Shown one piece after another: positions 7,072-27,015 of a stretch of 64,000 nt of DNA. Source of the DNA: Eubacterium limosum (lineage in GTDB: Bacteria; Bacillota; Clostridia; Eubacteriales; Eubacteriaceae); assembly GCF_000807675.2 (NCBI RefSeq), contig NZ_CP019962.1, positions 1,674,001 through 1,738,000 on the forward strand, written 5' to 3'. The notes beneath the pieces were generated by a model. The model saw only the letters and a program-made list of their open reading frames with translations. It did not search any database and was not told the DNA's origin. Each line of letters starts with the position of its first letter. Within the stretch, counting starts at the first letter, position 1. Both the position numbers and the translations under genes were made by a program.

Positions 7072-10000
7072 ATGGAAAGACAAATGAGTAAAAGAAATTA
7101 TTTCTTAAAGACTTTGACGATTCTATTTTTAAGTATCTTACTCTTACTGCCAACGCTGATGTTGGAAGGAAAAGAGGCAAAAGCCGCAGCTGTTACAGAA
7201 ACAAGAGCGGTTGATTTAAGTAAAGGTAATGTAGAGGACATAAGAGATGACGAGGTGATCCGGGTGTATCAAACAACCCAATCAACTTCAAATTATCTTG
7301 TAGTTAACGCCAAAAGAGCAACAGTTATTTTGGATAATTTAAATATTGTTCAGGGTGCAGGACGGAGTCCAATGACAATAGTTGCGAATTCTGATATTAA
7401 GATATTGCTCAAAGGAAGTAATAGAATGGTGCAGACAAAAAGCACAAGTTGCGGCCTTTTTATGGAGGATGGTGCTAGATGTACTATTGAAGATTATGGA
7501 AATGGTGATGGGAGTCTGGAGGTATCGAATAGTACTGTCGATTCTAAAAATGTTGTTCTTGGGGCTAGTGTGCAAAGCCACGCCACATTAACGATTAATT
7601 CAGGAACGGTTAAAGCAAAGACCGTAGGGATGGGTCCAGCAATCGGTGCCACAGCCGGAAACGATCAACCCGGAGGGTCAACTCTCGACTTAGTTATCAA
7701 TGGAGGAACCGTTGAAGCAATAACAGAAAGTTGGGGTGCCGCAATTGGTACCCAGGGCGATGTGCCGGAGAATCAGGAGAATACTGTTAATGTGACCATT
7801 AATGGAGGCAAAGTCATTGGAGATAACCATTCAAAAGACACACAAGACTCTCGACCAGGGAGGGTCAGAGGCGGTGCTACAATCGGCACTGGGTATGGCG
7901 GTTACTCTAAGCAAAATGTCACATTGAACATTCCTGAAAATTCAACTGCCGAGCTTGATTTAATAAGCGCCTATGGCGGCGCCGCAATTGGAGGTTCTGG
8001 AAGCTGGAATAGTGGAAGCACTAATGCTGGGCTTAATGAGAATGACAAAACTCATGAAAATATTGTCGCAAACATTGAAGGCGGAAACACAAAGATATCT
8101 GTACAGGGGCAAGCTCCTGGAATTGGGATCGGCGCCGGGGTAGCTTTAGACCAGAAGGTAGAAGTAAATATTTCAGGCGGGAACATTGACATAATGAATG
8201 ATACCGCAACTGTAAACTCCCGAGGACCTGGCATTGGTGTAGGTGTATTTTCTAAAAATACAGTATTCGACTGTAATATCTCCGGCGGAAACATAAATAC
8301 GGTTTCTCGAGATAGCAAGGATTATACTGTTAATGCACCGGCAATTGGGATCGCAGCAAAGAGTAAAAGTAATACAACTGTAAAATTGGATGATTCGTCT
8401 GGCAACACCTTTAACTTAAATGTAACGGGTGGCACCATTAACGCTGAAACCAGGTCAAGCGATACAAACATTCCGGATATTGGCACCATTGCAAACAATA
8501 CTTTTAATGTAAAAGTGGATGGCGGTTCCTTGAATGCTGTGAACCAGAGAATGAACGTGACAGCCAAAAACAGCCAAAACCAGAATGTTTATCCGGCAGC
8601 CGTTAAACTTGGCGGTATTACAGAAGAAAAGACAGCGGTAAAAAGTGCGAGTGTCGATGGTAAAAATTACGGCAAAGACCTGGTTGCCCAGTCTGGAAAG
8701 CTCTACTTATGGACGATTCCAGACAATAATAAGGCGATCACGGCCAATGTGAAAGATGATTCCAGAGCTTATAGCAATCCAGCGGTAAATTTGGCTTACA
8801 ACAGTGGTTTTACCTTTACAGACCCAGATGTCACCTTAAAGAAAACCATCACGCCAGAAGAGTTGGGAAGCTTTAATATTAAAAATGTTGGGGACAACAG
8901 CGTCACCGTTCAAGTGGGTGGAGTAAACAGCGATGATCAGCCTGTTTTACTGCAGGCCTATGAGCACAGCACCGACACAGCCGTTGGTGAGGCTCAGACC
9001 TATGATGCCGCTAAAATCGACTACACCTTTAGCGGGTTGACCAAAGGCAGACTCTATGACATTAAGGCAAAAGTGAATGGAAACGAAACTTACAACACCG
9101 CCGAAAAAGTGGCGCTGGTGGTAAAACCTTTTGAATATGCCCCGGCCTTACCAAGCGCAAAATTGAAAGGCGCATATGAGGCAAGTGCGGCGGCTGAAGG
9201 TGAAAGCTTTACCTATGCTCTGGCAAGTGGCTCTGTATTACCAGAAGGTTTAACCTTAAACAAAAATGGCATGGTTTCGGGCACACCAACACAATCTGGT
9301 GATTTTAGCGTTAATATTATCGCGACCGCAGCTGATGAAGGCATTTCTGCCAACAACAGCCGAACAGCAGCTGTTGCCATTAAAGTAGAGCCGATAAAAA
9401 TATCTTTATCCGTGGTAGATCAGGCAGGCCAGCCTTTAAGCTGTGGCTGTGAACTAACCAGTACAGCGGCAAAAGGAGGCGCGGCTGTGGGCGATACGGT
9501 TTTATTTACATTAACCCCATGCCCGCTGCACGATTTTGTCAAGCTTAACCTGAATGGCAATGATGTACAGGCCGTGTCTGGATCAAATGGAAAATTCACT
9601 TACTCTTATGTTGTAAAAGCAGGAGATAGTGAACTGAACATGAAAGCTTTTATGACTGAGAGTGAAAAAAGAATCACAAAGATCGAACGGGTTAGCGAAG
9701 AAAGGGAACTTGCCATTTATGCGAATGACGAAAAAAATGAAAGCTTAGCCCAGTTAAAGGCCTTTGTTAACAATAGTATTACGCTCAAGGCGACTTACAA
9801 TGACAGCACAGAAAAAACAGGAAAAGCAACCGATTTGGGATTAGGATGGGCTACGAACAGCACCTATTCACCTAAAGGCGGCACTTATGAATATAGTGTT
9901 TCTGCGGATGACACTTATGTGAAACAAACCGTCATAGTTAACACGGTTACCGCAGAATTGGGAGCTTTAAATGATGTGGTTCGTTCTGTCAGTGAAGAAG

Positions 10001-11259
10001 GGTATTCCACTATTGCGTCATTGGGGCTGCCGGAAACCATCGCTTGTACTTATCAGGCAGGTGTACCTGTAAACAGTGAGGATCGTGAGGTCGCTATCAG
10101 CTGGAAAACAGAGATACCAGAAAACTTTGGTAAGACAGCGACCGAAGCACCGGTTGTGTTTGAAGGTAGTGCTGCTGTACCAGAATGGGCAACACTTACA
10201 AGTAATGCTGTTTCTGTTAATGTCAGCATTAGTGACAGGGTAGTGCTGGTGCCGGTAATTACAATAGAGGATAAAGTATATGACGGCACAAAAACAGCCA
10301 ACTTTAAAGATACCCCAGCTTTAAATTCGGAAGACCTGACTAAAGGGACTGACGTTCAGTTATCTGGTATTCCAAAGGCCGAATTTAGTTCTTCCGATGC
10401 TGGCAAAAATATTCCGGTTAAGGTAAGCGGGTTGAGTTTATCTGGAACGGATGCTGGCAAATATGTTTTGGATTTAAGCAACGTGACTGGAAATATCACC
10501 CCGGCTTCCATCATCCTTACTGGTATTAGTATGGAAGATAAAAAAGTAACCGAAGACGGTAATAGTCAAACCATTGAAATCAACGGTGCATTGCCGTCTG
10601 GTGTGACTGTAAGCTATAGCTACCTAAAAGACGGGGAAAGTCAGCCAACCAGTACAGCGCCAACGAAGTCTGGCACCTACACGGTAACCGCCACCTTTAA
10701 AACTGACGTTAACCATGTGGTTGAACCTAAAACCATGGGCGCTAAGCTTGTGATTGAGGAAAAGAGTGCCGGAGTGGTTGTAGAAGAAATAACCACCGGC
10801 TTAACCGAGGAAGAGGCAGCCGGCATGAATGCCACTGTTCTGAAAAACGGCGAAGCCGTGCAGGTAGGGGATACCGTAACTGCCGGAGATAAACTGACTT
10901 ATCAGTTTGTGCCAGAAGCTGTCCGTGAAGCCTATGTTCCTTACGCCTTTACCATGAACGGCGAAATCGTCGCCGTCACAAAACTGGCAGAAGGCAAAGG
11001 CTATAGCGCCGAATACACGGTTAAAGAAAGCGACACTGCGCTTAAAGCAGATGCCAAATGTATTCTGTTAGGCAACTTCAGCGGTGATAAGGTCATCAAC
11101 ATTATCGACGCGCAGCAGATTGCTCAGGCAGCCGCAGCTGGCGGAACCATTGAAGACATGAAAAAAGCAGCCGGAGACGTCAACTTTGACGGAAAGATCA
11201 ATGTTATTGACGCGCAAAAAGTCGCGCAATACGCAGCGGATACAAGCGTTGTTTTTTAG
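7072..11259 (+). CDS. Secreted beta-helix / Ig-like surface protein with C-terminal dockerin
   Basis: A 1,395-residue exported protein. The ATG at 7072 is chosen over upstream in-frame starts because AAGGAG lies 5 bases before it; a signal peptide follows (residues 1-39). Residues about 45-540 contain many repeats of the type INGGTV-x-GAAIGT-G, as in right-handed beta-helix, carbohydrate-binding proteins such as the Cthe_2159 family. Then come a putative-Ig module (PSGTPTQSGDFSV region), a DUF-like YDG segment (DKVYDGTKTANF) and a 90-residue module that is conserved before all three dockerins of the locus. The last 65 residues are a dockerin with two calcium loops, the second being GDVNFDGKINVIDAQ. 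No membrane anchor is present, so attachment would go through a cohesin, encoded by the next gene. Confidence 0.85.
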   Translation: MERQMSKRNYFLKTLTILFLSILLLLPTLMLEGKEAKAAAVTETRAVDLSKGNVEDIRDDEVIRVYQTTQSTSNYLVVNAKRATVILDNLNIVQGAGRSPMTIVANSDIKILLKGSNRMVQTKSTSCGLFMEDGARCTIEDYGNGDGSLEVSNSTVDSKNVVLGASVQSHATLTINSGTVKAKTVGMGPAIGATAGNDQPGGSTLDLVINGGTVEAITESWGAAIGTQGDVPENQENTVNVTINGGKVIGDNHSKDTQDSRPGRVRGGATIGTGYGGYSKQNVTLNIPENSTAELDLISAYGGAAIGGSGSWNSGSTNAGLNENDKTHENIVANIEGGNTKISVQGQAPGIGIGAGVALDQKVEVNISGGNIDIMNDTATVNSRGPGIGVGVFSKNTVFDCNISGGNINTVSRDSKDYTVNAPAIGIAAKSKSNTTVKLDDSSGNTFNLNVTGGTINAETRSSDTNIPDIGTIANNTFNVKVDGGSLNAVNQRMNVTAKNSQNQNVYPAAVKLGGITEEKTAVKSASVDGKNYGKDLVAQSGKLYLWTIPDNNKAITANVKDDSRAYSNPAVNLAYNSGFTFTDPDVTLKKTITPEELGSFNIKNVGDNSVTVQVGGVNSDDQPVLLQAYEHSTDTAVGEAQTYDAAKIDYTFSGLTKGRLYDIKAKVNGNETYNTAEKVALVVKPFEYAPALPSAKLKGAYEASAAAEGESFTYALASGSVLPEGLTLNKNGMVSGTPTQSGDFSVNIIATAADEGISANNSRTAAVAIKVEPIKISLSVVDQAGQPLSCGCELTSTAAKGGAAVGDTVLFTLTPCPLHDFVKLNLNGNDVQAVSGSNGKFTYSYVVKAGDSELNMKAFMTESEKRITKIERVSEERELAIYANDEKNESLAQLKAFVNNSITLKATYNDSTEKTGKATDLGLGWATNSTYSPKGGTYEYSVSADDTYVKQTVIVNTVTAELGALNDVVRSVSEEGYSTIASLGLPETIACTYQAGVPVNSEDREVAISWKTEIPENFGKTATEAPVVFEGSAAVPEWATLTSNAVSVNVSISDRVVLVPVITIEDKVYDGTKTANFKDTPALNSEDLTKGTDVQLSGIPKAEFSSSDAGKNIPVKVSGLSLSGTDAGKYVLDLSNVTGNITPASIILTGISMEDKKVTEDGNSQTIEINGALPSGVTVSYSYLKDGESQPTSTAPTKSGTYTVTATFKTDVNHVVEPKTMGAKLVIEEKSAGVVVEEITTGLTEEEAAGMNATVLKNGEAVQVGDTVTAGDKLTYQFVPEAVREAYVPYAFTMNGEIVAVTKLAEGKGYSAEYTVKESDTALKADAKCILLGNFSGDKVINIIDAQQIAQAAAAGGTIEDMKKAAGDVNFDGKINVIDAQKVAQYAADTSVVF

Positions 11260-11298
11260 AAAAGCCTTTAAATTTTAGACACTGTTATTAAGGTTATT

Positions 11299-11327
11299 AA
11301 GCGCGCGGACAAAAACGCCGCGCGCTT
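11299..11327 (+). other. Intergenic stem-loop between dockerin and cohesin genes
   Basis: A perfect 10-bp GC-rich stem (AAGCGCGCGG / CCGCGCGCTT) with a 9-base loop, but the following sequence is only a loose ATTTTT tract. It may be a leaky terminator or an mRNA processing/stability element. Confidence 0.6.
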
Positions 11328-11366
11328 GATATAAATTTTTATTCTATTTTCTTTAAGGAGGAAAAA

Positions 11367-12839
11367 ATGAAAGCAAAAACACTTTCAAGCAGACTGATCG
11401 CGGGATTCCTGGGACTGAGTCTGTTCGCGTCTGCGGCGATTCCAGGAATCATGCCGCAAGCAAAAGCAGCAGAAGGTGCTGCAACATTTTCTGCTGTGGC
11501 AGATAAAACAGAGGTACACCCAGGCGGCACCTTTACCGTGGCCGTTTCAGTGACCCCAGAACCGTCAGTCGGTTCCTACGAAGCGGCGCTGGATTATGAC
11601 CATGATAAACTGGAGGTTGCTGACACAACCAAGTCAAGCTATGTCTTTAACTTTAAGCCTGAAGGCGGTGGCGGTTCTACTGGCGTTTATGCCAACTGGT
11701 TTGATGCAACTGGTAGCACACCAATGACTGAAACATCGGAACTGTTTACCGTAACCTTCAAAGTTAAAGATGGCGCAACTGGCAATACGGGCCTCGCTAT
11801 GGATCCTCGTGTTGTTGGAAACGCCGCCGCCGAAGACATCACCACCAACTGCAGCGGAAACGCCAGCAGTGTGAACATTACCGAAGCACCGCCAGCGCCA
11901 GTACCGGTCACCGGCGTATCCGTATCCTTAGACGCTTCCGAAATGTTCCCGGGACAGAATGCCCAGGCCACCGCAGCGATAGAGCCGGCAGACGCCGACA
12001 ACCAGAACGTGTCATGGTCTTCTTCTGATAATGCTGTGGCAACCGTTGACGCAGACGGTAAAGTGACCGCCATTGCGGCTGGTACTGCCAGCATTACCGC
12101 AACCACCGAAGAAGGCGGCTTTACAGCATCTGCAGATGTGACCGTCAAGGCCGACACCGTCAAAGCACTGGCTGTGGCTGCCGCACCGACCAAAGTGGAT
12201 TACCTTCAGGGCGACGCCATCGATTTAACCGGTGGTAAATTAACCGTTACCTATGAACAGGCAGGCGATGTTGAAATGGATATGGCCCAAGCCACAGCCA
12301 TTGTGGACATGAACCAGGTGGGTGAAGCCGTACCAGTCGCCATTGAATTTGGCGGACAGAAGCTGGAAAACGCTTTTACCATCAAGATTAAAGAAGCGGT
12401 TGTAACCGGTCTGGAACTGGTGAAAGCACCGACAGGAAAAACCACCGTTGGCGATGAAATGCCAAACCTGGAAGGCGGCATGATGAAAGCCACCATCAAT
12501 GATGGCGAAACTGTCCGTGAGCTGCCATTATCCGACGCCCAAATCACCGGTTATGACAAAACAAAAGCCGGCGAACAGACCTTAACCGCAACCTATGGCG
12601 GCAAGTCCATCGAATTTAAGATTACCGTTGCCAAAGCTCAGGCAGGCGGTGGTAGCGTTGATGGCAATAACGATGGCCAGAGCGCGGATGGTAAAGCGCC
12701 ATCCAATGTTAAGAACCCCGTAACCGGCTTAAATTTCTCTCAGGATGCTGTCAATGGTTTTGGTTTCCTGACCACCGGCTTAGCCATTTTAGCGGTTTCC
12801 GGTATCAAGGTTTTCCGCATGAGAAGAAAAATGCAGTAA
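11367..12839 (+). CDS. Cell-wall-anchored single-cohesin protein (anchoring scaffoldin-like)
   Basis: A 490-residue secreted protein. A signal peptide (1-36) precedes a cohesin domain at about 38-170, with the family hallmarks PGGTFTVAVSV, VGSYEAALDYDHDKLEV and a late TVTFKVKDGATG strand. A bacterial Ig-like group 2 domain follows (VTGVSVSLDAS ... GTASITA, about 176-260), then two Ig-like modules of the group 3 type (about 265-425). A Gly/Asp/Asn linker leads to NPVTG, a hydrophobic helix and an RRK-rich tail, the layout of a sortase substrate with an atypical N-P-x-T-G motif. AAGGAGG precedes the ATG. It lies between dockerin genes, and is the obvious wall receptor for their products. The cognate sortase for NPVTG is not evident here; the only sortase in the window belongs to a pilus operon. 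Confidence 0.85.
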   Translation: MKAKTLSSRLIAGFLGLSLFASAAIPGIMPQAKAAEGAATFSAVADKTEVHPGGTFTVAVSVTPEPSVGSYEAALDYDHDKLEVADTTKSSYVFNFKPEGGGGSTGVYANWFDATGSTPMTETSELFTVTFKVKDGATGNTGLAMDPRVVGNAAAEDITTNCSGNASSVNITEAPPAPVPVTGVSVSLDASEMFPGQNAQATAAIEPADADNQNVSWSSSDNAVATVDADGKVTAIAAGTASITATTEEGGFTASADVTVKADTVKALAVAAAPTKVDYLQGDAIDLTGGKLTVTYEQAGDVEMDMAQATAIVDMNQVGEAVPVAIEFGGQKLENAFTIKIKEAVVTGLELVKAPTGKTTVGDEMPNLEGGMMKATINDGETVRELPLSDAQITGYDKTKAGEQTLTATYGGKSIEFKITVAKAQAGGGSVDGNNDGQSADGKAPSNVKNPVTGLNFSQDAVNGFGFLTTGLAILAVSGIKVFRMRRKMQ

Positions 12840-12997
12840 TCCCTTATGGGGTGAACACAAAAGAACACGTAAAAAACATCTATTAATTATTACACACACA
12901 AATCATTTAAGCACACAGGAAAGAGGAGCGATCTTCTTTTCAGCACACGAGAAAACACGAAATTCTAAGACAAAGAAATAAGGCATTTAACACAATG

Positions 12998-13051: not shown

Positions 13052-13092
13052 TTATTGTATATGGGATTTGACAGTAAAAGGAGAAATCATCC

Positions 13093-16000
13093 ATGAAGAA
13101 AAAAATGAGAAAAAAAGCGATACCGCAAAAGGTTGCGGCAGGCGTCATGTCCGGCGTGATGCTCTTAAGCTCTACCGGCGCGACAGCATTGGCGCAGGAG
13201 ATCCAGGGAACCGAGCTTTTTAAGGGTGATGACGCAAAGCAGACCGCAAAAGGCATTGTAAAGACGGCGGTGCAAAGCGCCCCGACCCTTGCGAGCCGTA
13301 CGGATACCACGGTCACTCTGAACAGCGAAGCAAATTTATATTACGCGTATACAGAAGCGGGAAAAGAACCATCTGCGTACACCTGGACCAAGGCAAGCGG
13401 CGATACTGTAACTATCAGCGGCCTGACAGCGGGCACGTCCTATGATTTCGTCTGCGCTACCGATGATAAGGGAACGGGTATGAGCCCTGCCAGTACGATC
13501 TATACCCTTCAGGCAGCGCCGGTAAATCCTGAAAGCTGCGCAGCGGTGACGTATCCAGAGGAAACCATTACCATTAAAGCAGGCTATGAAATGAATACGC
13601 AAAAGGACTTTAATGGGGATATGGTGGCGAACGGGGCTTCGATTTCTGATTTTATTGGCAAAGGCCTTTATGTGCGCGCCGCTAAGAACGGGGAAATCCC
13701 AGCAGGGGTTGCCGCTGAATACACCATCAAAGCCCGTCCGGAAAACAGTACCTCTGTGCCGGCCGACCAGATTACCCGAAGCACAACCGGCTTTAGCTTT
13801 ACGCCTAACCCTCTGGGCATTTACCAGTATACCGGCGGCGGCCAGACTACGCCTAAAACCATTGTGGGCGGTAAGGTGACAGGCCTGCAGCCCGGAACGG
13901 TTTACAGCCTCATTGATTACACCTCGGCGACCGCAAATGCTTTTAAATCCGGCACCAACACCCAGGAGATCCGCACCAAGAGCGTGGTTGCGCCAGCCAC
14001 CAAGGACGGCCCGGGAGCCACCCAATCAGCCAATACGGTCAAGGCCGATAAAACAGAAGCCGATTCCGGCGAGACCATTACCTATACCATTACCTATGGG
14101 GAGGGCTATACACCAAGTATGACCATTGGCGGCGATGAAATGGCCTTTGATACCGCAGCGGTTGATCCAGAGACCAAAACAGCGGTCTTTGAATACACGG
14201 TAAAAGCAGGGGATACCACGGTCAGCGCAGTGGCGCATTTTAATGAACGTGGGGTAAAAGCCGTCGATGCTCAGGAAAATAAAACCCTCTACGCAAACGA
14301 TCCTTCGAACCAGTCCGCCCAGGCGCTGACTGAGAGCCTGCCGAAAAAGGTGGGCGTAACCTACGATAACCAGACAAGGGGAGAAGCGGACGCGTCCTGG
14401 CAGCTGAACAAGGACAGCCAATGGAATGTAAAGGGCGGTGACTATACCTATGAAGCCCTGGTTGGCGCCGTTAAGGTGACCCAGGCCGTTGCGGTGCTGC
14501 CAGTGTTCGCCACCTTTGAGCCAATGGGGGATATTAAGCTTCCAGTGAAGACCGACGGCTATACCGCCAATGAGCTGGGGCTTATAAACAGCATTGAGGT
14601 GACCTATACGGGCTCAGGCTTTGAAACCCAGACCGACAAAGCCGTAGCCGTTGTGTGGAGCCCGGCAGTGCCTTCCGGCTTTGGCGCCAACCCGACCGAT
14701 CGTCAGCTCTTTAGTGGGAAGGTAAACGTTCCTGAATGGGCAACGATCACCAATCCAACATTGAGCCGGGAAGTTAGCTTTGGTATTCCGGTAACGGTGA
14801 ATGGGTTAGTTTTCTATGATAAGCCCTATGACGGAACCGATGTTGCCAGTTGGAATGAAAATGACATTGGCAAGATGAGCCTTAAGGTGAACGGAACGAC
14901 TTTACAAGGATACACCTTGCAAAAAGATAGTGGCGCGAAGATCCATCTGGACAGTCCCAACGTGGGCACGCGCACCATCGCAGGGGTCTCCGGCCTGAGC
15001 ATCGCTGGCCCAGAGGCGGATAAATATGTTTTGGATTTCAGCGGCATGACCGTCACCATTACCAAGCAGACCAACGTCACAGCCCCGGACACGGTGACAG
15101 TAACATCCGGCAGCGTCACCGATACCAGCGCTGAAGTCAGCGTGACAACGCCAACTCAAGGCTATCTGTTGGAATATGCCAGCGCCGAAGCGGGTCAGCA
15201 GCCCACGATCTGGCAGACAAGCGGTACCTTTACCGGTTTAAAACCCGGCACCGCGTATGACTTCTATGCGCGCTACGCCGAAACCAGCAATAACGCCGCA
15301 TCTGATGCCACAAAGACAGCTTCATCGACCAAAACCAACGCCCAGGTTGCAGCACCCACCAAGGCAGGCGCTGGAAAAAATGACCCGGCATGTACCATCA
15401 CCGCCGATGTCGAACACGCTGCCAAAGACGCGAAAGTCACTTATACAGTGAAGCCGTCCGAAAATTTCAGCGTTAATGAAAACACCAGCCTCACGATCAA
15501 CGGCCAGGCCGTAGAGCTGACAAAAGGCGCTGTGGATGCGAAGGGGCTTTCAACCTATACAGCACTATACACGGTCAAAGACGCGGATGCCGTGATCAAG
15601 GCCGAAGTGACCTTTAACAAACGGGCGGTTAAAACAGTTACACCCCCCGACGCCATCACCACGACAGCCAATGACCCAGTTAATGCCAGTCAGCAGACCC
15701 TGGAGCAGAGCCTGCTCCAGACCCTTGAAGTCAAGTATGACAATGGGGTAACGGGACAGGAGCTTGTACAGTGGGCTAAAAAGGGCGAAAGCCCAGACTG
15801 GGACGCTAAAGGGAAGACTTATGCTTATACAGCCACCCTGGTCAGCGATAAGAGCAAGACGACCGATCTGACGGTCACCGTCAAACCCGTCAACGCCACC
15901 ATCACACCCATTCCAGAAAAGACCATCGCCATCCGCGAAAAGGCCTACACCATGGAAGAGCTGGGACTGGGCAGCACCCTTGCGGTCACCTTTGATGAAA

Positions 16001-19000
16001 GCGTTGAGGCCATGGACTGCCTAGTAAGCTGGAGTCCAGACACACCGGGCGATTTTGGCACCACGGGCAGTAAGGAAACCAGCAAGACGTTTGCCGGAAC
16101 CGTCACCCTGCCGGGCTGGGCCACCGCTGCAGGCACAACGATTGACGCGACCGTAAAAACCGCGACGCCGTTAACCGTGACCGGCATTACCGTCACGCCA
16201 AAGGCCTATGACGGCACAACTGAGGCGACCCTAGTCTTAGACGGCGGCCAATTGTCAGGTGCAATTGCCCAGGGTGATACTGTCGAATTTAACACAAGCG
16301 CAGTCTTAGAAGCCAATTTTGATGACGCAGATGCAGGCACAGGCAAAAGCGTCACCGTGAGCGGCAACGCCCTGCAGGGTTCAGAGGCGTCTAAATATAT
16401 CATTGACTGGAGCGCCTGTGATATTAAAGGCGATATTACCAAGGCAGTCGGCATTGCCGCGCCGACCACGCCGGTAGTGGACACCGGCCAAACCACCTCC
16501 ACCAGTGTGACCCTAAAGCCAGTAACGATAACGGACCCTATCGCCACCGCGGCAGGCGCCAGAGTACAGTACAGTAAGGATCAGGTGAACTGGCAGGACC
16601 GTCCGGTTTTCAATGGGCTGGAGCCCGGCACTGCCTACGCCTTTTACGCCCGTGTCGGCGCAACCGGCAACACCGAAGCGTCGGCTTCGTCCGCTGCCAG
16701 CCCAACCATCACCACCAAGGTGGCCGTCGTGGCTCCGGTTCTGAGCGTTGACGGCGACTGCACGGCCGGCCAGGCGTGTAAGGTAGAGCTCTACGACGCT
16801 GCGAACAAAAAAATCAATGACCTGCTGGAGGCCGACGCAGGAACCAAGGTCAGCTACAAAATCACCTACTGCGACAGCCATACCATGCACTTTACCTTTA
16901 AAGGCAATGCGCTGGCGCTTTCAGACAGTACGCCGGGAATGCGCAGGGCACCGGACGAAAAACGCACCTGGTACTATGACTACACCATCCAGCCAGGCGA
17001 TACAACCGTGACCGCCGCCGCGGAAGCCGCCCCGAAAACCGTTAAAAATATAACGGCCGATCCCATTACCATGGCGGCCAACGATGCCCGCAACCAGAGC
17101 GCAGAGACGCTTTTGAAGAGTCTGCCAAAGAGCATTAAGTTCCAGTATGACAATGGGACAGAGGGAACCGATCTGGTCGAAAACTGGACACTGAAAACAG
17201 GAGAATGGGCGCTTAAGGGGGCGAATCTGACCTATGAAGGCACCCTTAAAAATAATCCAAGAGCCAAAGTGACCCAGTCGGTGACCGTGGATCCTGTGAC
17301 CGCCGAAATACAAACGAATGTTGGAAAAATCACCCTTAGGGAACGGCCCCAGGGCTATACCCTGGCCGATCTGGAAGGCGAAGGGCTGCCCATGGCGGCC
17401 AGCATCGGTTATGACAGCTATGTGGACCCGGCCGATAAAACAGCGGCCATCACATGGCAGCTGCCCGAGGACTTTGGGAAAACATCCGGCGCTGTGGACA
17501 TCACCGGCAGTGTGCAGCTGCCCGAATGGGCCACCGCAGCCACTACGGATGTCATTTCAGCGAATTTTGAGATCACCGCCAGAGCGCAGGCATCATTGGA
17601 AATTGATGTGGCTGACGTTACAAAAACCTACGACGGCAGTGCCGTCATGGAAAACGTGCCGGTTAAACTGAACAGTACAAGCCTGGACCCGGCGCACAAA
17701 GCCGTCACCCTGTCCGCAGAGACAGCCACCGTCCGTTTCCAGACCCCAAATGTGGGCACAGGTTTGACCTACACCGTGGAAGGCCTGACCCTGACCGGCG
17801 CCGATGCCGACTGGTACGCCTTGAGTGCAACCTATAAAAATGGTGTCATTGAGCAAGCAGCCGTGGCCGCTCCGGCAGTCCCAGAGGCTGACAGCATCAG
17901 CCTGAACAGCATTGCGCTGAAACCCGTCGTCCTTGAGGGCGCCGCCAAGGCCGCCGGCGCCAAGGTGATCTACCAGATTTCAAAAGATAACGGCAAAACC
18001 TACGAAAACAATACAGACAAATACAGCCCGGACTTCAAAAATCTTGATCCCGGAAAGGCCTACAGCTTTAAAACCAGTGTGGAAGCCACCGCCAACACAA
18101 AGGCGTCCGAAGCCAGCGCGGGATTAACCATCCGGACAAAGTTTAACCCAGTGGCACCCATCATTGCCAAGACCTCCCCCTGTGAAGGCGGCGAATGTAA
18201 GGTCGATATGGCCGATGCCCAGGGAGCCCCCATTACAGACAAAAGTGAAGTGGGCACCGGGGACGTCATCCACTACACCATCACGAGTTGTGACAACCAT
18301 ACGCCAGGTAAGCTGCTCATTAACAGCAAAACCGAGGTGCCTTTATCCGGTACTGGCAAGGTGCGCACCGGCTTTTACACCGTCACCGCCCAGGACAGCC
18401 AGCTGGTCTCACAGGTCACGTTTAATGACCGTCAGGCCGTGCGTGTGGAATCACCAGAGCCCATTGAAATGTATGCCAATGACGACCGCAACCAGAGTGC
18501 CGAAAGTCTGGCGGACAGCTTATCCAAGGAAGTGGCCGTGGTCTATGACAACGGCACCAGAGGAACCGAAACCATTCGCAAATGGAATCCCTCCGGCACG
18601 GCCTGGAACCCCAGAGGCGGAAGCTACACCTATGTGGCGGCAGTCGGCGGAGACGGACAGTTTTTCACCCTGCAGAATGTAACGGTAAAACCGGTCAGCG
18701 CCGTCTATGAACCCTTTGCGGATACCACTCTGACCGTCAGTGAGGAACCCTATGCCAAAGAAGAGCTGGGGCTCAGCGACACCCTTGCGGTCACCTACAC
18801 CTCCGAAGACGGCGTGGTCAAGGAAACCCGGGACGAACCCCTTGTCTGGACGCCGGAAGTCCCCGGTGATTTCGGAACCACCGAAACCACCCAGACTTTT
18901 ACCGCCAGATTGGCGCTGCCAGCCTATGCGGGCGGCGATAAAGCGCTGAGCAAGACCATTCGTGTGAGCGAAAAGAGCCCGCTGGTCATCCGCGGTGTAA

Positions 19001-20322: not shown

Positions 20323-21015
20323 ATGCGGCGAAGATATGTGACAAAACAGGAGCACCCGGACATGGAAAAAACATTAAAAATTTTAAAGGAGGAAAAAGGA
20401 TACACGTTCAATGTTGAACAGAATGTCGCGATAAACTATGGATTGTGTGTGGGTGCCGATGTACTTGGCACCGCCAATCCAGTGTATAGCGGCGTGCAGA
20501 TGAGTGAAATTTTCCGGGTTCAGTCTGAGGGACTGGACGCCACCCTGCTGCTTAACCCGGAGCTGGGTGGCGCAAGGGCAAAAGAACTCAGGCTTGGTCT
20601 TGAAGCTGGCCTGAATGTCAAACCATTAGCTGACGAGGAACTGCCTCTGACCAATATCCAGTGGCTGCGGCGCGCCATGGCAAAGGGAATCGATATTGAG
20701 CTTTACCCCGAATTTAAAGGGAGTATTACAAAAATTATTAATAAATACAATGAACTCTGTGGATGTCAAAAGCCAAAAGGAAATAAAAAATGTATTTTGA
20801 AGGTAATTCGTGTCAAAGAAGAAGTAAACGAAATGGAAGTTCAGTACGACGATCCAGAAAAATTGGACGCTGTTGTTAGTGAAATAAACGAATCCCATTT
20901 AGACAAGGTGCAACGGTTGAAAGAAAAACTGTATGAGTGTGATATTCACACATTGGGAAAAAGAGTCCTTGAGCCCGTGGAGCAGCAAACGTATTTTGAA
21001 ATTGTAAAAGAATGA
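20323..21015 (+). CDS. Short-repeat protein of the (I/L)RLGLExGLxV type, unknown function
   Basis: A 230-residue soluble protein with no signal peptide. Its middle contains the degenerate repeats MSEIFRVQSEGLDA, AKELRLGLEAGLNV and WLRRAMAKGIDI, joined by short PxLxxxxL linkers. This resembles the roughly 17-35-residue repeats ending in GL(D/N)V that are common in uncharacterised Clostridia proteins, often on mobile DNA. The C-terminal 80 residues are charged and likely helical. It lies 18 bases before the third dockerin gene and after a small membrane protein. I cannot assign a function; a protein-interaction scaffold is the reasonable guess. Confidence 0.6.
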   Translation: MRRRYVTKQEHPDMEKTLKILKEEKGYTFNVEQNVAINYGLCVGADVLGTANPVYSGVQMSEIFRVQSEGLDATLLLNPELGGARAKELRLGLEAGLNVKPLADEELPLTNIQWLRRAMAKGIDIELYPEFKGSITKIINKYNELCGCQKPKGNKKCILKVIRVKEEVNEMEVQYDDPEKLDAVVSEINESHLDKVQRLKEKLYECDIHTLGKRVLEPVEQQTYFEIVKE

Positions 21016-21033: not shown

Positions 21034-24000
21034 ATGACAATATATTTAAAAAGAATAATTTGTTTTGCATTGTGTGTACTGTCAGTTCTGTTGTTGACAA
21101 GTATTCCTGGCAAAGCGGCTGGCACAAATTATGACATAGATTTTACTCCAAGCCAGGAAGGTGACAAGCTGCCCGAAGGATGGAGTGTCTATAAAGGAAG
21201 TGCCAGTATGAAAAATGGCTATCTTGAGATGGAAAAGGGTACCATTCTTTGTTTGCCAGAAAATATGACAAATAGTAATTTTACTTATGAGGCAGATTTT
21301 ACCATAACAGATGCTGATAACAGTAGCCGATGGTTTTCTTTGATGTATCATCTTCTTGGTTCAGGATCGGATCCGGCCCCATATATGAATATGTGCATTC
21401 GACAGGATGCCACTGCCGGTAACGGTGTCGAGGTTGCATACCGAACCTCCGGTTATAACTGGAATGTGGTAAAAACAGCAAGTTACGATAGTTTTATCGA
21501 AGAGAGCAAAATATATACGGCTCAAGCGATTGTAAATGGGGACAAAGTGATGGAATCCATCAATTCTAAGCCGATGATCCTTTATGACGAAGTTAAATCA
21601 GGAGAAAGCGGAAAATTCGCGCTTCAGACAGATGGGTGTAAGGCACGAGTTTATGGTATTAGCCTAAAAGAGACACAGCCGTTGCCTGATACAATTCCGA
21701 GTCAGGCAGATAAAATTAAAGAAGTTTATGAACCGAATACTGGAATTGTGGCACCGCCCACAGTCGTTCTGCAAATGGATGAACAAGCAGATATGACAGG
21801 GCTTTCAGGCAATAAGCCCCCACAGACCGCTTTGTTCGATTTAATGTTGCAGATGGGGGAACCCAAAATTCAATTAGGTGCAGAAACGCAAATTGATTTA
21901 GAGCAGGCCTTTGGAGCCTGCGGAAAAAAAGTCATTCCTGCTTTTACAGTGGATAATATTGAGGAAGCAAAAGCATTGGTTCAGTATGTTCGACTAAATA
22001 GTGAATTTGATTTAATGGCGGTTTCGGAAAGTAGTGAGGTGCTCCAGTACATTTATGAAGAAGAGCCTTCAGCCATTCGAACCGTACAGAAGTTTCAAAC
22101 CCTTGAAGAAGATCGGACCACTTCCACCGTTACACACACCTCAAAAGCTTCTATTGCCATGGTACCAAGATCCATAAACCGTGCATCCGTGGAGTATCTG
22201 CAAAGCCGTTTTTTGTCTGTTTGGGTAAAGGATGATGCTTCGACTGATGAAGCGATAACAAAGGGAGCGCTGGACAATGGTGCAAACGGTGTTGTGCTAA
22301 AAGATGAAGAAACAGCTTATCAATTATACGAACTGGTTGATCGAAAGAATGTTTATTGCCGAAAAACACCCTTTATCGGACACCGAGGCTATCCTAAGGT
22401 CGCGCCGGAGAATACGGTGGAATCATTGAAAGAAGCAGGTCGGGCCGGGGTTGAAGCTGTGGAGTGTGATGTGTACATAACGAGTGACCAGCAATTAATT
22501 ATTAATCATAATGGAGATATAAACGGTTATACGACCAATTCTTCTGCAAAAGGGAGTGTTGAGTCGATGACATTGAGTCAGCTGAAGTCTTATACCTTGA
22601 AAAAAACAGGACAATATGGCAATTGTAAGTTTGCTACATTAGATGAACTTTTTGATACAATGGTCAATGAGTTTCCGAAAATGGTTTTGGTGATTGAGAT
22701 TAAGACATCCAAACCAGAAGTGGCTCAAATGATTAAAGATCTGGCTGAGAAGAAAGGCGTGGCTGATCGGATTGTTGTGATTAGTTTTAACGCAAATCAG
22801 ATAAGTAATATGGGAAAAACAATGCCGGGTATTGGTTTAGGCTATCTTTCATCACACTCTGGAAACAGCACCAGTGAAGCGGTTTACCAGGTTATGAAGT
22901 CAGTGGGAAAGCTGGGGTCTGCCTTTGACCCCAATTATGGAAACGTCAATAAAGAGCAGATGTATGCATTGAGACACCGTGGAATCGCGACCAATGTGTG
23001 GACGGTTGATGGTGAAACAAATATTGCATCACAGATTAACAATGGAGCCTTTTCAATTACAACAGATGATGCAAATATCAGAGGAAAGTATAATACACTA
23101 TTTTTACCAGAACGGTTAAATTCAGACTATATTCTTGGAAGCCAGGATAAAACATTCGATTTAAGTATGGGAGACGTAAGGATCAATCAGGGAGACATGG
23201 TACGCGTATACCAGTCAAATCCAAATGAACAAACGACTTATGGCATTACCGTAGTGGATAATGCAAAAGCTACGCTTATTCTGGATAACATTAATCAGAA
23301 GACAAAGCATCCCTCTGAGATTGCTTCCAATGAGATTGCTCCCTCTGCTATTAAGGTAGGTAATAATGCCGACTTAACCATACTGGTGAAAGGAGAAAAC
23401 AAAATTAATCAAGTCAATGCTGAAGTTGGTCCCGAAGTTGATGCGATTGGACTTGGTAATGCATCTACCATCAAAATTAAGACTTTTGAAGAAACAGAAG
23501 GAAAACTTACACTGACGCAGGGAACCCAAGAATCCCAAGAACTCCAAGGAATCCAGGGAATCGAACAGAAAAATGTAGCTTATCAGAAAGCGCTTATTGG
23601 CGTTAACCAACCATCTGGCGATAAAGCGACAGCAACATTGAATGTGGATTCAGGAGTGATTGCAGCTACTTCGAAGGACAATGCTCCGGCGATTGGTGCA
23701 ACAAAGAACTCAACCCTTGTGCTTAATATCAATGGAGGAAACGTTGATGCGGTAAGCAACGGACTGGGAGCAGCCATTGGGACTCCGGGTTCAGGACAGA
23801 CTGGGGACGACAGCAGTGTAACCGTTAATTTAAACGGAGGCGTGGTTAATGCTCGGACAGAATCTAAGGATGATCTGTCTGGAGGAGAAAGCATTCGTTC
23901 GGGAGCCGCCATTGGAACGGGCTATGGAAATGCGGGAAATCAGCATGTGATTTGCAACATTCCAGAAGATTCAAAAGTAAGTTTAAATGTTACATCTGCC

Positions 24001-27000
24001 TATGGCGGTGCTGGTATTGGTACATCGGGCTGCTGGTTTGACGTAGGCACGACCGGCAATACAGCAGGTTCTGGCCAGGAAACCGTCGAGCTTAACATCC
24101 ATGGCGGAATGATCACTGGGGGAACCAGAGGACAGGCGCCTGTGATTGGTATCGGATCAGGAAATAATACCGGACAGGATACGCCGTCTAAAAGTGTTTT
24201 TGTCAATATGAGCCAAGGTAATGTAACCGTAAATAATACAGGAGCAGACAAAAGCGGCAGTGCTTCACCGATAGGAATTGGGATGTTTTCAAAAAATACA
24301 GTCTTTGAAATGAACCTTTCCGGCGGTATTGCCAATACAACTTCGCAAAATGATAGGAATTTCATAGCGTCTTCGCCTGCTATCGGCGTATCGGATAAAA
24401 ATAAGAACAATACGGATTTAAATATTGATGCTGCCAGTGAAAATACGTTTAAACTCAAGATTGCAGGCGGAAATTTACGGGCAGAAACGAAGTCGGCAGA
24501 TCCAACAATTCAGGATATTGGCGCGCCAGAAAACAATACGATGGGTATTGTGATTGACGATGGCTTATTTGAGATCGTGAATGAAAAAATGTCTGTAACA
24601 GCGAAAAATAGTGAAGGCCAGAACGTTTATCCTGCTTCTCTTATTTTTAGTGGTAAAAATGAAAGCTTTGACATTAAAGAGATAGGAATTGGCGATAAGG
24701 TCTTTAATAAAGATTTGCGCACAACTGGCGGAAAGATAACCATATGGACAAAGGAGATGAATGACGAGCAGCCAGTTACCACTAAAATAGATGGCATAAC
24801 GCAGAATTACATGAACCAAGGCGTAAGGCTTATTTACAGACAAGGCTTCACTTTTGAAGATCCTGTTATCCCTTTAAAAATGGAAAGAGAAACACAAAGT
24901 CTTGGCAATGTTGAATTAAAGCGTTTTACAGAAAATCAGGTGGCACTGACTTTGAATGACATAGACGGTACAACGAATATCTTTTTAGTCGCTTATGAGC
25001 ATGGAACCAAAAATCAGGTTGGAGAACGCCAGGCTTATGTTGTGGGTCAAGACGAGTATGTATTTCAAGGGCTTACTGGCGAAAAAATTTATGATTTTAC
25101 ATCATTTATTGAGGAATCAGGGGAATGCTGGAGTCTCGAAAGTGATCCGATAACAGTAATGCCCTTTTCGTATGAGCCCACACTTGATGAAGGCATCATT
25201 GGGCAGGCGTATAAAGGGAGCATCGGCAAAGGGAATGAACTCTTTAACTATGTGTTAGATGAAGGAACGCCATTGCCCAAAGGACTGCAGCTTAGCGATA
25301 ATGGCGAAATTACAGGAACACCTATGCAAGCAGGTACAACGGAGTTAAAGGTTACGGCTATTCCCAAAGAGCCAGGTATAGCCAGCAGCAACAAGCGAAT
25401 GGCACAAGTGCAACTAACCGTAAAAAATATTCTAAAAGAGGTTGAGTTGGTCGATGCAGGAAAAAAACTTGAAGTTTATGCCAATAGTGTTGCGAATAAA
25501 TCGTCAGATGCTCTCAAAGCGTATGTTAATATGAATGCACTGGTAAAAGGTGTGTACGTTGACAATAAAGTAGAAATAGGGAGTGCAGAAGAGATGGGGC
25601 TGCAGTGGGTCACTGAAGGGGCCCATCAGCCAAAAGGAGGCGAGTATACCTATCAAATAAAATTTAAAGAAAGTGTACTTGAACAGACAATTACGGTAAA
25701 ACCTGTGGTCATTGAATTAAGCTCCTTACAAGATGTTATTAAAACCATTCATGAAAATGGTTACGATAATTATACAGCACTGGGTTTGCCTGAAAATGTC
25801 CGAATGATTTATCCAGAGGGGGTAAATGTTGTTGGAAATGAAAAGAACGTGGGGATACGATGGACAACGGAAATCCCAAAAGATTTTGGAAAAACAGTTT
25901 TAGAAAAGCCCTATGTTTTTGAAGGTGTTGCAGAGGTGCCTGCGTGGGCGAGTATACAAAATGTAGGCGTACGGGTAAATGTCGAGTTAACTAATAAAAT
26001 TCTTATCAAACCAATCATTAATGTTAAGGATAAAACGTATGATGGCAATAAAGACGCTGAGCTGGCAGCTTATCCGTATATTAACTTAGAAGAATTGACC
26101 GCTGGAACAGCCGTCCAGCTTTCGGGAATTGCGAAGCTGCAGTTTGTAGATGAGAGTGCTGGTGTTGATAAACCCGTTCGCATCGATGGACTCAGTCTGA
26201 CAGGAATGGATGCTGAAAACTATGATTTAGATACTAGCGGAGTAACGGCGACGATTTTTCCAAAGGTCATTGAGCTTTCAGGGATTAGCTTTGAGGACAA
26301 AACGACCTTTGAAGATGGAACACCCCAAACAATGTCAATACAGGGGACACTTCCGAAAGAAGTTCGCGTAGAGTACAGCTATTTAAAACAAGGCGAATCC
26401 ATTTCGCAGGCTATACCACCTAAAAATAAAGGACATTATCTTGTTGAGGCAAAATTTTTGACCGATGCCAACCATAGCACTGAACCAGAAAGTCTAAAAG
26501 CAAATTTAGTCATTAAAGAAGCAGAAATGATTTTTCTACCCGAAATAGAAACGGGATTAAGCCCGGAAGCGTTGGAAGGGATAAAAATAAATGTTTTGAG
26601 CAATGGTGAAGCAATCCAGACAGGCATGCCCCTCCAAAAAGGAGATACCTTGAGTTATCAATTTAGTATACCTGATAGGCGCGAAGTCTATGTGCCGTAC
26701 GAAATGTTCGTCAATGAAAGCGCCGTTCCATTGGAGAAACTTGAGAATAAAAAAGGCTACAAGGGAGCGTATATGATAAACGATACGGATAGTGTTTTGT
26801 CAATTCGTGTAAAATGCAGGAGGCTTGGAGACATTACAAATGATGAAAAAGTTAATATCATAGACGCCCAGCGAATCGCTGGAATAGCAGCATCTGGTGC
26901 AGCCGTATCCAATGCAGAAAAAATACCAGGAGATGTCGATTTTGATCAGAAGCTTAATATTATCGACGCACAAAAAATTGCGCAATTTGCTGCGGATATG

Positions 27001-27015
27001 AATGTTCATTTCTAA
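21034..27015 (+). CDS. Secreted glycerophosphodiester phosphodiesterase fused to beta-helix, Ig-like modules and dockerin
   Basis: A 1,993-residue protein. A signal peptide (1-30) is followed by a concanavalin/LamG-like jelly roll (about 33-210). A degenerate TIM-barrel-like stretch (about 235-440) leads into a complete GDPD domain (about 446-690), with the catalytic HRG and PENT of GHRGYPKVAPENT, VECDV, and the second histidine in NHNGDINGY. Residues about 705-1260 are a beta-helix region paralogous to that of the 7072 gene (GAAIGTGYG, AYGGAGIGTSG). Ig-like and YDG modules (DKTYDGNKDAEL), the 90-residue pre-dockerin module and a dockerin (NDEKVNIIDAQ, GDVDFDQKLNIIDAQ) complete it. GDPD enzymes hydrolyse glycerophosphodiesters, including teichoic acid or phospholipid head groups, so this is the one clear enzyme of the cohesin-dockerin set. 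Base composition is AT-rich compared with the 13093 gene. Confidence 0.87.
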   Translation: MTIYLKRIICFALCVLSVLLLTSIPGKAAGTNYDIDFTPSQEGDKLPEGWSVYKGSASMKNGYLEMEKGTILCLPENMTNSNFTYEADFTITDADNSSRWFSLMYHLLGSGSDPAPYMNMCIRQDATAGNGVEVAYRTSGYNWNVVKTASYDSFIEESKIYTAQAIVNGDKVMESINSKPMILYDEVKSGESGKFALQTDGCKARVYGISLKETQPLPDTIPSQADKIKEVYEPNTGIVAPPTVVLQMDEQADMTGLSGNKPPQTALFDLMLQMGEPKIQLGAETQIDLEQAFGACGKKVIPAFTVDNIEEAKALVQYVRLNSEFDLMAVSESSEVLQYIYEEEPSAIRTVQKFQTLEEDRTTSTVTHTSKASIAMVPRSINRASVEYLQSRFLSVWVKDDASTDEAITKGALDNGANGVVLKDEETAYQLYELVDRKNVYCRKTPFIGHRGYPKVAPENTVESLKEAGRAGVEAVECDVYITSDQQLIINHNGDINGYTTNSSAKGSVESMTLSQLKSYTLKKTGQYGNCKFATLDELFDTMVNEFPKMVLVIEIKTSKPEVAQMIKDLAEKKGVADRIVVISFNANQISNMGKTMPGIGLGYLSSHSGNSTSEAVYQVMKSVGKLGSAFDPNYGNVNKEQMYALRHRGIATNVWTVDGETNIASQINNGAFSITTDDANIRGKYNTLFLPERLNSDYILGSQDKTFDLSMGDVRINQGDMVRVYQSNPNEQTTYGITVVDNAKATLILDNINQKTKHPSEIASNEIAPSAIKVGNNADLTILVKGENKINQVNAEVGPEVDAIGLGNASTIKIKTFEETEGKLTLTQGTQESQELQGIQGIEQKNVAYQKALIGVNQPSGDKATATLNVDSGVIAATSKDNAPAIGATKNSTLVLNINGGNVDAVSNGLGAAIGTPGSGQTGDDSSVTVNLNGGVVNARTESKDDLSGGESIRSGAAIGTGYGNAGNQHVICNIPEDSKVSLNVTSAYGGAGIGTSGCWFDVGTTGNTAGSGQETVELNIHGGMITGGTRGQAPVIGIGSGNNTGQDTPSKSVFVNMSQGNVTVNNTGADKSGSASPIGIGMFSKNTVFEMNLSGGIANTTSQNDRNFIASSPAIGVSDKNKNNTDLNIDAASENTFKLKIAGGNLRAETKSADPTIQDIGAPENNTMGIVIDDGLFEIVNEKMSVTAKNSEGQNVYPASLIFSGKNESFDIKEIGIGDKVFNKDLRTTGGKITIWTKEMNDEQPVTTKIDGITQNYMNQGVRLIYRQGFTFEDPVIPLKMERETQSLGNVELKRFTENQVALTLNDIDGTTNIFLVAYEHGTKNQVGERQAYVVGQDEYVFQGLTGEKIYDFTSFIEESGECWSLESDPITVMPFSYEPTLDEGIIGQAYKGSIGKGNELFNYVLDEGTPLPKGLQLSDNGEITGTPMQAGTTELKVTAIPKEPGIASSNKRMAQVQLTVKNILKEVELVDAGKKLEVYANSVANKSSDALKAYVNMNALVKGVYVDNKVEIGSAEEMGLQWVTEGAHQPKGGEYTYQIKFKESVLEQTITVKPVVIELSSLQDVIKTIHENGYDNYTALGLPENVRMIYPEGVNVVGNEKNVGIRWTTEIPKDFGKTVLEKPYVFEGVAEVPAWASIQNVGVRVNVELTNKILIKPIINVKDKTYDGNKDAELAAYPYINLEELTAGTAVQLSGIAKLQFVDESAGVDKPVRIDGLSLTGMDAENYDLDTSGVTATIFPKVIELSGISFEDKTTFEDGTPQTMSIQGTLPKEVRVEYSYLKQGESISQAIPPKNKGHYLVEAKFLTDANHSTEPESLKANLVIKEAEMIFLPEIETGLSPEALEGIKINVLSNGEAIQTGMPLQKGDTLSYQFSIPDRREVYVPYEMFVNESAVPLEKLENKKGYKGAYMINDTDSVLSIRVKCRRLGDITNDEKVNIIDAQRIAGIAASGAAVSNAEKIPGDVDFDQKLNIIDAQKIAQFAADMNVHF

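What the first reader, a model, noticed from the sequence alone, without database searches (positions are those of the whole stretch)
7072..27015. Single-cohesin wall anchor with three giant dockerin proteins in a non-cellulolytic acetogen-type genome
One secreted protein (11367-12839) carries a cohesin and a sortase signal; three neighbours (7072, 13093, 21034) end in dockerins with nearly identical loops (NIIDAQ or NVIDAQ in all six calcium repeats). The receptor has one cohesin, so the dockerin proteins would compete for one site instead of assembling a multi-enzyme scaffold. Cargo modules are beta-helix, Ig-like, YDG and a GDPD enzyme, not cellulases. This looks like a surface display system distinct from cellulosomes.
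Basis: partly seen in the sequence, partly recalled or inferred. Interest (0 to 1): 0.88.

Follow-up and report, generated by a model that had tools for sequence, protein, structure and literature searches.

The report
Lock-and-key display behind likely DNA switch
A gut acetogen carries several separate lock-and-key (cohesin-dockerin) sets that would hang giant proteins on its cell wall, and the set found here sits behind a DNA segment that looks built to flip and turn it on or off.

Summary
In detail: one wall-anchored receptor with one cohesin (11367-12839) and three giant proteins with near-identical dockerins. The reading changes in two ways.

(1) It is not a lone set. The genome (close to Eubacterium callanderi, probably E. 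limosum) has 5 cohesins at 4 loci and 15 confident dockerins. Each locus has its own dockerin type: 45-92% identity within types, 21-39% between. At one syntenic locus the receptor's cohesin differs between species (18-33%) while its stalk is kept (82-93%), and the neighbouring dockerin protein is replaced with another dockerin type. This is natural, indirect evidence for matched pairs. No dockerin protein carries a recognised cellulase.

(2) Two of the four loci, with 13 of 15 dockerins, lie downstream of candidate tyrosine-recombinase switches. The window recombinase gene is bracketed by a perfect 33-nt inverted repeat. Nine such candidates exist in the genome; two relatives of them are seen inverted between genomes. 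The window's own switch was seen in one orientation only, predicted OFF.

Single-cohesin sortase anchors (ScaE) and surface-gene invertons are each known; my searches found no paper on the combination.

The parts
4884..4916 (+). left inverted repeat, candidate recombination site (core GTCGCAAAATACACTATTTTGCGTC at 4889-4913)
   Evidence: 33 nt, 100% complementary to 6078-6110; 2 matches in the window, mean 0.00 in 100 shuffles (up to 3 mismatches allowed)
4944..4972 (-). promoter-like site TGGTAA-17-TATAAT pointing out of the segment, away from the operon as assembled
   Evidence: the TATAAT block is invariant in 4 related switches; outward TATAAT in 7 of 7 switch families, 0 of 2000 shuffles reach 7. 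Against: for this segment alone 26.5% of shuffles score as high
4917..6077 (+). predicted invertible segment holding the recombinase gene
   Evidence: inversion of two other switches of the family between genomes
5027..6079 (+). tyrosine recombinase (Phage_integrase)
   Evidence: PF00589 E 4.2e-33, N-terminal SAM-like domains
6078..6110 (+). right inverted repeat (overlaps the recombinase stop codon by two bases)
6172..6768 (+). HD-domain protein with the HHExxDGxGYP motif; c-di-GMP phosphodiesterase-like
   Evidence: PF13487 E 1.4e-22; NosR-family c-di-GMP phosphodiesterase model 74.9 bits, below its cut-off of 400; motif meaning recalled
6786..6935 (+). conserved two-hairpin leader RNA before the first dockerin gene
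   Evidence: no Rfam match
7072..11259 (+). dockerin protein 1 (1395 aa): partly Gly/Asn-rich N-terminal region, YDG, X-like module, dockerin (aa 1337-1387)
11367..12839 (+). wall receptor: signal peptide, one cohesin (aa 37-175), Big_2, Big_3, NPVTG sorting signal (12714-12728)
13093..19959 (+). dockerin protein 2 (2288 aa): 4 YDG, fn3, X-like module, dockerin (aa 2231-2280)
20323..21015 (+). unknown 230-aa gene between dockerin genes, conserved in E. callanderi FD and G002
   Evidence: no Pfam family; orthologs L059_604, L050_10700
21034..27015 (+). dockerin protein 3 (1993 aa): GDPD (aa 450-680), partly Gly/Asn-rich region, YDG, X-like module, dockerin (aa 1931-1982)
   Evidence: dockerin 18.9 bits, below the cut-off of 22.9

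Best explanation
This is a phase-variable surface display operon with its own lock-and-key code. A sortase-anchored receptor with one cohesin binds, through Ca2+-dependent cohesin-dockerin contacts, three giant secreted proteins that lack wall anchors and end in an X-like module plus dockerin. Other loci in the same genome do the same with different, non-matching cohesin-dockerin pairs, so each receptor collects only its own operon's cargo. In front of this operon a self-encoded tyrosine recombinase flips a 1.2-kb segment at a 33-nt inverted repeat. The segment carries the recombinase gene and a promoter that reads outward, away from that gene. When the recombinase points away from the operon the promoter faces the operon (ON); as assembled here it points toward the operon (predicted OFF). 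Shown: the domains, the locus-specific dockerin types, the receptor domain swap, the bracketed recombinase, and inversion of two related switches between genomes. Inferred: binding and its specificity, sorting by a sortase, the promoter, inversion of this particular switch, and control of the dockerin genes about 1 kb downstream by it.
For: Domains. Private codes: dockerin identity 0.45-0.85 within the window type (8 sequences, three genomes), 0.56-0.92 within the 2.45 Mb cluster (10 sequences), 0.21-0.39 between types, the doubtful 4.28 Mb one left out. Matched-pair replacement at the 1.518 Mb locus: receptor aa 1-183 (signal peptide and cohesin) 18-33% identical between G000 and G001, stalk aa 184-543 82-93%; the neighbouring dockerin protein has another dockerin type; G000 against G003 shares both (97-100% over receptor aa 1-120, 92% for aa 121-180, dockerins 89%). 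Cargo change under one code: the third cargo of E. callanderi FD is a PLAT protein whose internal dockerin still reads ILDAQ/IIDAQ. Switch: perfect 33-nt repeat around the recombinase gene, kept in 3 of 3 genomes that hold this cohesin type; the site centre differs between genomes but agrees between the two arms within each. Switch family: 9 of 18 recombinase-homolog loci of the genome carry repeats of at least 20 nt and 95%, against 0 of 300 control pieces. Inversion seen: 1.97 Mb switch, segment 98.9% identical when reversed (60% unreversed), flanks 97% and 96%; short-segment switch, 96% when reversed (57% unreversed). Outward TATAAT in 7 of 7 families.
Against: The window switch has the same orientation in G000 and G002, where both flanks align, and in FD, where one flank aligns; 15 of 16 usable comparisons show no inversion. 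For the window segment alone the outward promoter score is reached by 26.5% of shuffles (12 of 21 segments reach 5% or less), and inward TATAAT occurs in 3 of 7 families. At 1.518 Mb the whole cargo protein differs (27-50% in every window), not the dockerin alone, and the receptor's last ~180 residues also diverge (31-62%). Two of the four cohesin loci (325 kb, 1.518 Mb) show no near-perfect long repeat among those listed and no recombinase homolog nearby. A promoter-like site at 6914-6942 could serve the dockerin genes independently (such sites are no more frequent there than in shuffles). Whole-protein Pfam scans at E 0.01 missed the cohesin in two receptors of this genome, which pass only as excised domains or in the genome scan. 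No binding was computed. The first calcium loop of two of the three dockerins is degenerate (loop positions recalled).
Confidence: 0.66

Rival explanations
1. A constitutive, non-switching cohesin-dockerin display operon. The recombinase and repeat are a neighbouring mobile-element remnant or a switch for another gene, and the dockerin genes use their own promoter and leader RNA.
For: Promoter-like site 6914-6942 and conserved leader at 6786-6935 lie after the HD gene; two other cohesin loci show no switch; phage-like genes (KilAC-type, sigma-type) follow the island; the window switch was seen in one orientation only.
Against: The repeats are inverted and bracket only the recombinase gene; a mobile element would leave direct repeats around the whole island (recalled; direct repeats were not searched for). 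Related segments are observed inverted. The recombinase travels with the cohesin operon to another chromosomal site in E. callanderi FD, judged by its left-hand neighbours. An outward TATAAT is present in 7 of 7 switch families.
Confidence: 0.24
2. A degenerate or alternative cellulosome: several anchoring scaffoldins of a polysaccharide-degrading complex whose enzymes are elsewhere.
For: Same domain pair; single-cohesin anchors exist in real cellulosomes. In G010, another genus of the family, one 740-aa frame has two cohesin matches and ends in a dockerin, which is scaffoldin-like. 21034 has a sub-cut-off 3-keto-disaccharide-hydrolase match (22.1 bits, cut-off 26.8).
Against: In this genus 11 of 11 cohesin proteins have one cohesin each; no glycoside hydrolase family passed its Pfam cut-off in the 16 dockerin proteins scanned, one of them without its last ~67 residues; in this genome cohesin and dockerin hits lie in different genes.
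Confidence: 0.05
3. All dockerins bind all cohesins of the cell (one promiscuous pool), so the locus-specific sequences are mere drift after duplication.
For: Cross-binding of divergent pairs is known in some cellulosomes (recalled, not looked up); no binding was tested here.
Against: Receptor cohesin and dockerin type changed together while the receptor stalk was kept; dockerins of one locus keep the same loop residues across very different cargo.
Confidence: 0.15

Closest known systems
ScaE of Ruminococcus flavefaciens (single-cohesin, LPXTG-anchored receptor; PMC2930009, passages read)
   Same: one cohesin, sortase anchor, binds more than one dockerin protein including a cellulose-binding protein (CttA)
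   Different: part of a fibre-degrading cellulosome with other scaffoldins; here four separate sets, no recognised cellulase cargo, and a recombinase switch candidate in front of two sets
Non-cellulosomal cohesin and dockerin modules (Peer et al. 2009; recalled, seen only as a citation; the paper is not held)
   Same: cohesins and dockerins outside cellulosomes
   Different: here multiple locus-private pairs, a matched replacement between species, and linkage to recombinase switches
NagJ-type cohesins (solved structures 2ozn and 2jh2, found by profile)
   Same: sequence-detectable cohesin relative in a protein named as an O-GlcNAcase
   Different: there the cohesin sits on an enzyme (recalled); here on a dedicated wall receptor
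Invertons and recombinase switches near surface genes: CwpV/RecV and pdcB of Clostridioides difficile, gut invertons (PMC2784873 listing with start of abstract; PMC9286219 passages; PMC11892184 passages; PMC5903667 passages)
   Same: inverted repeats flank a segment with a promoter in front of a surface or c-di-GMP gene; tyrosine recombinases linked to Clostridia invertons
   Different: here the recombinase gene lies inside the segment with a promoter-like site facing away from it, and the presumed target is a cohesin-dockerin operon with an HD-domain gene in between
Hin switch of Salmonella (named in PMC5903667 as a recombinase located within its segment)
   Same: recombinase inside the segment it would invert
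   Different: Hin is a serine recombinase driving flagellin genes (recalled); this is a tyrosine recombinase

Membership tests
cohesin (PF00963) | profile match above the curated cut-off | tested here: met
   46.7 and 51.3 bits against 24.1 for the window receptor
cohesin (PF00963) | cohesin beta-sandwich fold | not testable with these tools
   structure prediction switched off; a genus profile matches solved cohesins, the single sequence does not
dockerin type I (PF00404) | two repeats with calcium loops, above the curated cut-off | tested here: met
   7072 and 13093 above the cut-off in whole-protein scans; 21034 only in the genome scan (24.7 bits), 18.9 bits; first loop degenerate in two
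dockerin type I (PF00404) | binds a cohesin | not tested
   no binding data; the joint replacement is indirect
cellulosome | scaffoldin with several cohesins | tested here: not met
   one cohesin in each of 11 cohesin proteins of the genus; a two-cohesin frame exists only in G010 of another genus
cellulosome | dockerin-bearing plant-cell-wall enzymes | tested here: not met
   no glycoside hydrolase family above its cut-off in the 16 dockerin proteins; one sub-cut-off 3-keto-disaccharide-hydrolase match in 21034
sortase-anchored surface protein | signal peptide, sorting motif, hydrophobic stretch, basic tail, sortase in the genome | tested here: met
   (NPVTG; signal peptide and tail read by eye); 6 sortase genes in the genome
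site-specific invertible element (inverton) | inverted repeats around a segment next to a recombinase | tested here: met
site-specific invertible element (inverton) | both orientations observed | tested here: inconclusive
   seen for two sister switches, not for the window's own

The most novel reading that the evidence does not exclude
The bacterium runs several insulated cohesin-dockerin channels to its wall, each with its own code, and flips at least two of them on and off independently by recombinases that sit inside or beside the segments they invert. A clonal population would then be a mosaic of cells showing different giant-protein coats, and whole channels (switch, receptor, code and cargo) move between chromosomal sites as cassettes.
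Probability: 0.48. Interest if true: 0.78.

Novelty: new variant of a known kind. Interest (0 to 1): 0.66.

Why it matters
Cohesin-dockerin pairs are among the tightest protein contacts known (recalled) and are used in engineering, yet their non-cellulosomal roles are poorly understood. This genus offers four or more naturally distinct pairs in one cell, plus a natural experiment in which the cohesin differs on an otherwise similar receptor. If the switches act as predicted, cohesin-dockerin display joins pili and capsules as a phase-variable surface trait, testable in a culturable gut acetogen used in gas fermentation (recalled).

Tried and rejected
The idea that this is the only cohesin in the genome was dropped. 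The 250-aa NPSTG neighbour of the doubtful 4.28 Mb dockerin was tested as a divergent cohesin and rejected (hhalign probability 0.5%; no Pfam cohesin; below the inclusion threshold). That dockerin-like stretch lies inside an M60-peptidase-like protein and scores 20.7 bits, below the cut-off, in the whole-protein scan, so I count 15 confident dockerins, not 16. A known riboswitch in the leader: no Rfam match. A covariance model of the leader was given up because MAFFT misaligned the stems; a pattern search replaced it. Viral contigs gave no copy of the site core and 4 recombinase relatives at 26-31%. My first description of the 1.97 Mb operon as TasA/SipW-like is not supported by Pfam: its first gene is a VWA protein and the next two have no match. 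The recombinase as integrase of a mobile island was considered; inverted repeats and the observed inversions argue against it, but I did not search for direct repeats around the island.
Full report
What is there. The 11367-12839 gene encodes a secreted protein with one cohesin, Big_2 and Big_3 domains and an NPVTG sorting signal. The genes at 7072, 13093 and 21034 encode secreted proteins of 1395, 2288 and 1993 aa, without sorting motifs in their last 60 residues, whose last 154-165 residues are a conserved module (called X-like here by analogy, recalled) plus dockerin. The 21034 dockerin is weak by Pfam (18.9 bits, cut-off 22.9; 24.7 bits) but aligns fully with its siblings. Pairwise the three share C-terminal stretches of about 520-660 residues at 31-43% identity; 7072 and 21034 also share a 750-residue region, partly Gly/Asn-rich, at 36%, and 21034 has a GDPD domain. 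The order is kept in G002 (three dockerin genes and receptor) and in E. callanderi FD, where the third dockerin gene is different.

The genome. The window lies at 1,674,001-1,738,000 of a single 4.42-Mb contig. The genome has 5 cohesins at 4 loci and 16 dockerin hits, one of them doubtful. The loci are 325 kb (1 cohesin + 1 dockerin), 1.518 Mb (1+1), the window (1+3) and 2.45-2.485 Mb (2+10). Whole-protein Pfam scans missed the cohesin in two receptors, the 901-aa and 720-aa proteins; excised, they score 39.7 and 31.9 bits, and the weakest of the genus cohesins scanned 24.5, against a cut-off of 24.1. In the genus 4 of 5 genomes have cohesins; in the family 5 of 40, the fifth being G010, whose cluster has another dockerin type and one frame with two cohesin matches and a terminal dockerin. 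Pfam families above cut-off in the 16 dockerin proteins include LRR, Ig-like, YDG, fn3, RCC1, C-type lectin, transglutaminase-like, GDPD and M60 peptidase (the last in the doubtful one); no glycoside hydrolase family passed (one protein lacked its last ~67 residues in the scan).

Private codes. Dockerins are 0.45-0.85 identical within the window type (8 sequences from three genomes), 0.56-0.92 within the 2.45 Mb cluster (10 sequences), and 0.21-0.39 between types, the doubtful one left out. The cohesins of other loci are 13-26% identical to the window's. At 1.518 Mb, G000 and G003 share one pair. In G001 and G002, between related flanking genes, the receptor keeps its FIVAR stalk (82-93% over aa 184-543; the last ~180 residues fall to 31-62%) but has another cohesin (18-33% over aa 1-183), and the neighbouring dockerin protein is different throughout (27-50%) and of another dockerin type (0.39); these identities were computed for G001, whose two proteins look the same as those of G002. 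In FD the third cargo of the window-type operon is an unrelated PLAT protein whose internal dockerin keeps the window type. Codes stay while cargo changes, and lock and key change together. Specific binding is the simplest reason, but no binding was measured or modelled.

The switch. The recombinase gene at 5027-6079 is bracketed by a perfect 33-nt inverted repeat, whose right arm overlaps the stop codon by two bases. FD and G002, the other two genomes with this cohesin type, have the same arrangement (97%). Between genomes the site centres differ (TACACTA, TTATGTA, TATACTC), yet the two arms agree at the centre within each genome, with 0, 1 and 1 mismatches over the 25-nt core, as a recombinase that needs matching overlaps would require (recalled). 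In FD the unit sits beside genes that in G000 lie next to another switch and surface gene at 1.09 Mb; only the left side could be compared. At the window's place next to the U32 peptidase gene, FD and G003 have other recombinases and other neighbouring genes. Units therefore seem to move or exchange as cassettes.

The switch family. Of 18 recombinase-homolog loci in the genome (E up to 1e-5), 9 carry such repeats: 7 around the gene, 2 as a pair 144-183 bp apart just after it. None of 300 random 4-kb pieces of other held DNA of this genome has a repeat of at least 20 nt, 95%, 100-2500 bp apart. The second kind stands directly in front of the 2.45 Mb cohesin cluster (42 nt at 86%; an inner 25 nt is perfect), so 2 of 4 cohesin loci and 13 of 15 dockerin genes lie downstream of a candidate switch; whether all ten genes there share a transcript is unknown. 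One search gave 16 comparisons with the segment and at least one flank aligned over 100 bases; 1 shows inversion. Rows without that were dropped (L062, L097, L103, L107, L108, L106, L109 and L110). The inverted one is the 1.97 Mb switch in G001, with breakpoints at the repeats, segment 98.9% identical when reversed and flanks 97% and 96%. A short-segment switch of G002 is inverted relative to two G003 copies: segment 96% when reversed with the right flank at 79% (left flank 66%), and 83% when reversed with the left flank at 92% (right 71%) (non-matching pieces align at about 0.5-0.7 there). In 7 of 7 bracketed families an outward TATAAT lies 22-53 nt from a repeat (shuffle mean 1.8 of 7, 0 of 2000 shuffles reach 7; inward 3 of 7). 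With a minus-35-like hexamer the outward match scores at least as high as the inward one in 21 of 21 segments; 12 of 21 outward scores are reached by 5% or fewer of shuffles, the window's by 26.5%. The families are related, so not fully independent. On this model the operon is ON when the recombinase points away from it; the window is then predicted OFF.

Limits. The window switch itself was seen in one orientation only. About 1 kb, an HD gene and a conserved leader RNA lie between it and the first dockerin gene, and a promoter-like site at 6914-6942 could act alone. The 325 kb and 1.518 Mb loci show no such switch.

Literature. Searches for cohesin + dockerin + Eubacterium limosum (one paper, listing only), dockerin + phase variation + invertible (none), cohesin + dockerin + phase variable (one review, listing only), Eubacterium limosum + phase variation (two papers, listing only) and invertible promoters + Eubacterium + tyrosine (one review, listing only) showed nothing on this combination. 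The library lacks most subscription papers. ScaE shows that single-cohesin sortase anchors are known (PMC2930009, passages). Gut inverton work links tyrosine recombinases to Clostridia invertons (PMC11892184, passages), and PMC5903667 notes recombinases occasionally within invertible segments (passages).

Noticed in passing
window 6786-6935: Conserved two-hairpin leader (loop GCGCCAA, then TCACCTTTTTACC) between the HD gene and the first dockerin gene; also before a surface gene at 1.09 Mb (L079 about 5762-5905), in FD and, with changes, in G002; no Rfam match.
   Followed up: partly
window 27569-30199; L026 5187-7245; L079 11144-13726; L081 5883-8657; L083 10974-14139: A recurring gene tail near these surface islands: a ~200-aa protein, a KilAC or antirepressor-like protein, a replication-initiator-like protein and a sigma-like factor. 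Only the window members were tested; the rest is by eye from ORF lists, and not every island has every member.
   Followed up: partly
L022 5069-5307 (genome 2.451 Mb): 42-nt inverted repeat (86%) between a recombinase gene and the ten-dockerin cluster; the best promoter-like match in between points away from the cluster.
   Followed up: yes
L027 3525-9528 (4.28 Mb): M60-peptidase-like 1745-aa protein with a dockerin-like stretch in mid-protein beside a 251-aa NPSTG protein that is not a detectable cohesin; conserved in 4 genomes.
   Followed up: partly
L132, L133 (G010): A genome of another genus in the family has a cohesin/dockerin cluster with its own dockerin type (ISAFDALMALQIATGK), including a frame with two cohesin matches and a terminal dockerin; no recombinase noticed by eye among ORFs of 120 aa or more in 36 kb.
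   Followed up: partly
window about 58472-58849: One of six sortase genes of the genome lies in the window.
   Followed up: no
window 3391-5030; L051; L113; L114: The site after the U32 peptidase gene holds a recombinase in all four high-completeness genomes of the genus: with the cohesin operon in G000 and G002, with other recombinases and neighbours in G001 and G003; an exchange hotspot.
   Followed up: partly
L080 2810-5572 (3.62 Mb): A bracketed recombinase whose outward promoter-like site would, as assembled, read toward a leftward gene that looks by eye like a sensor histidine kinase.
   Followed up: no
L023 9677-11615 (2.476 Mb): A 396-aa signal-peptide ORF and a 246-aa dockerin ORF lie end to end and may be one gene split in two; left as read.
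   Followed up: no
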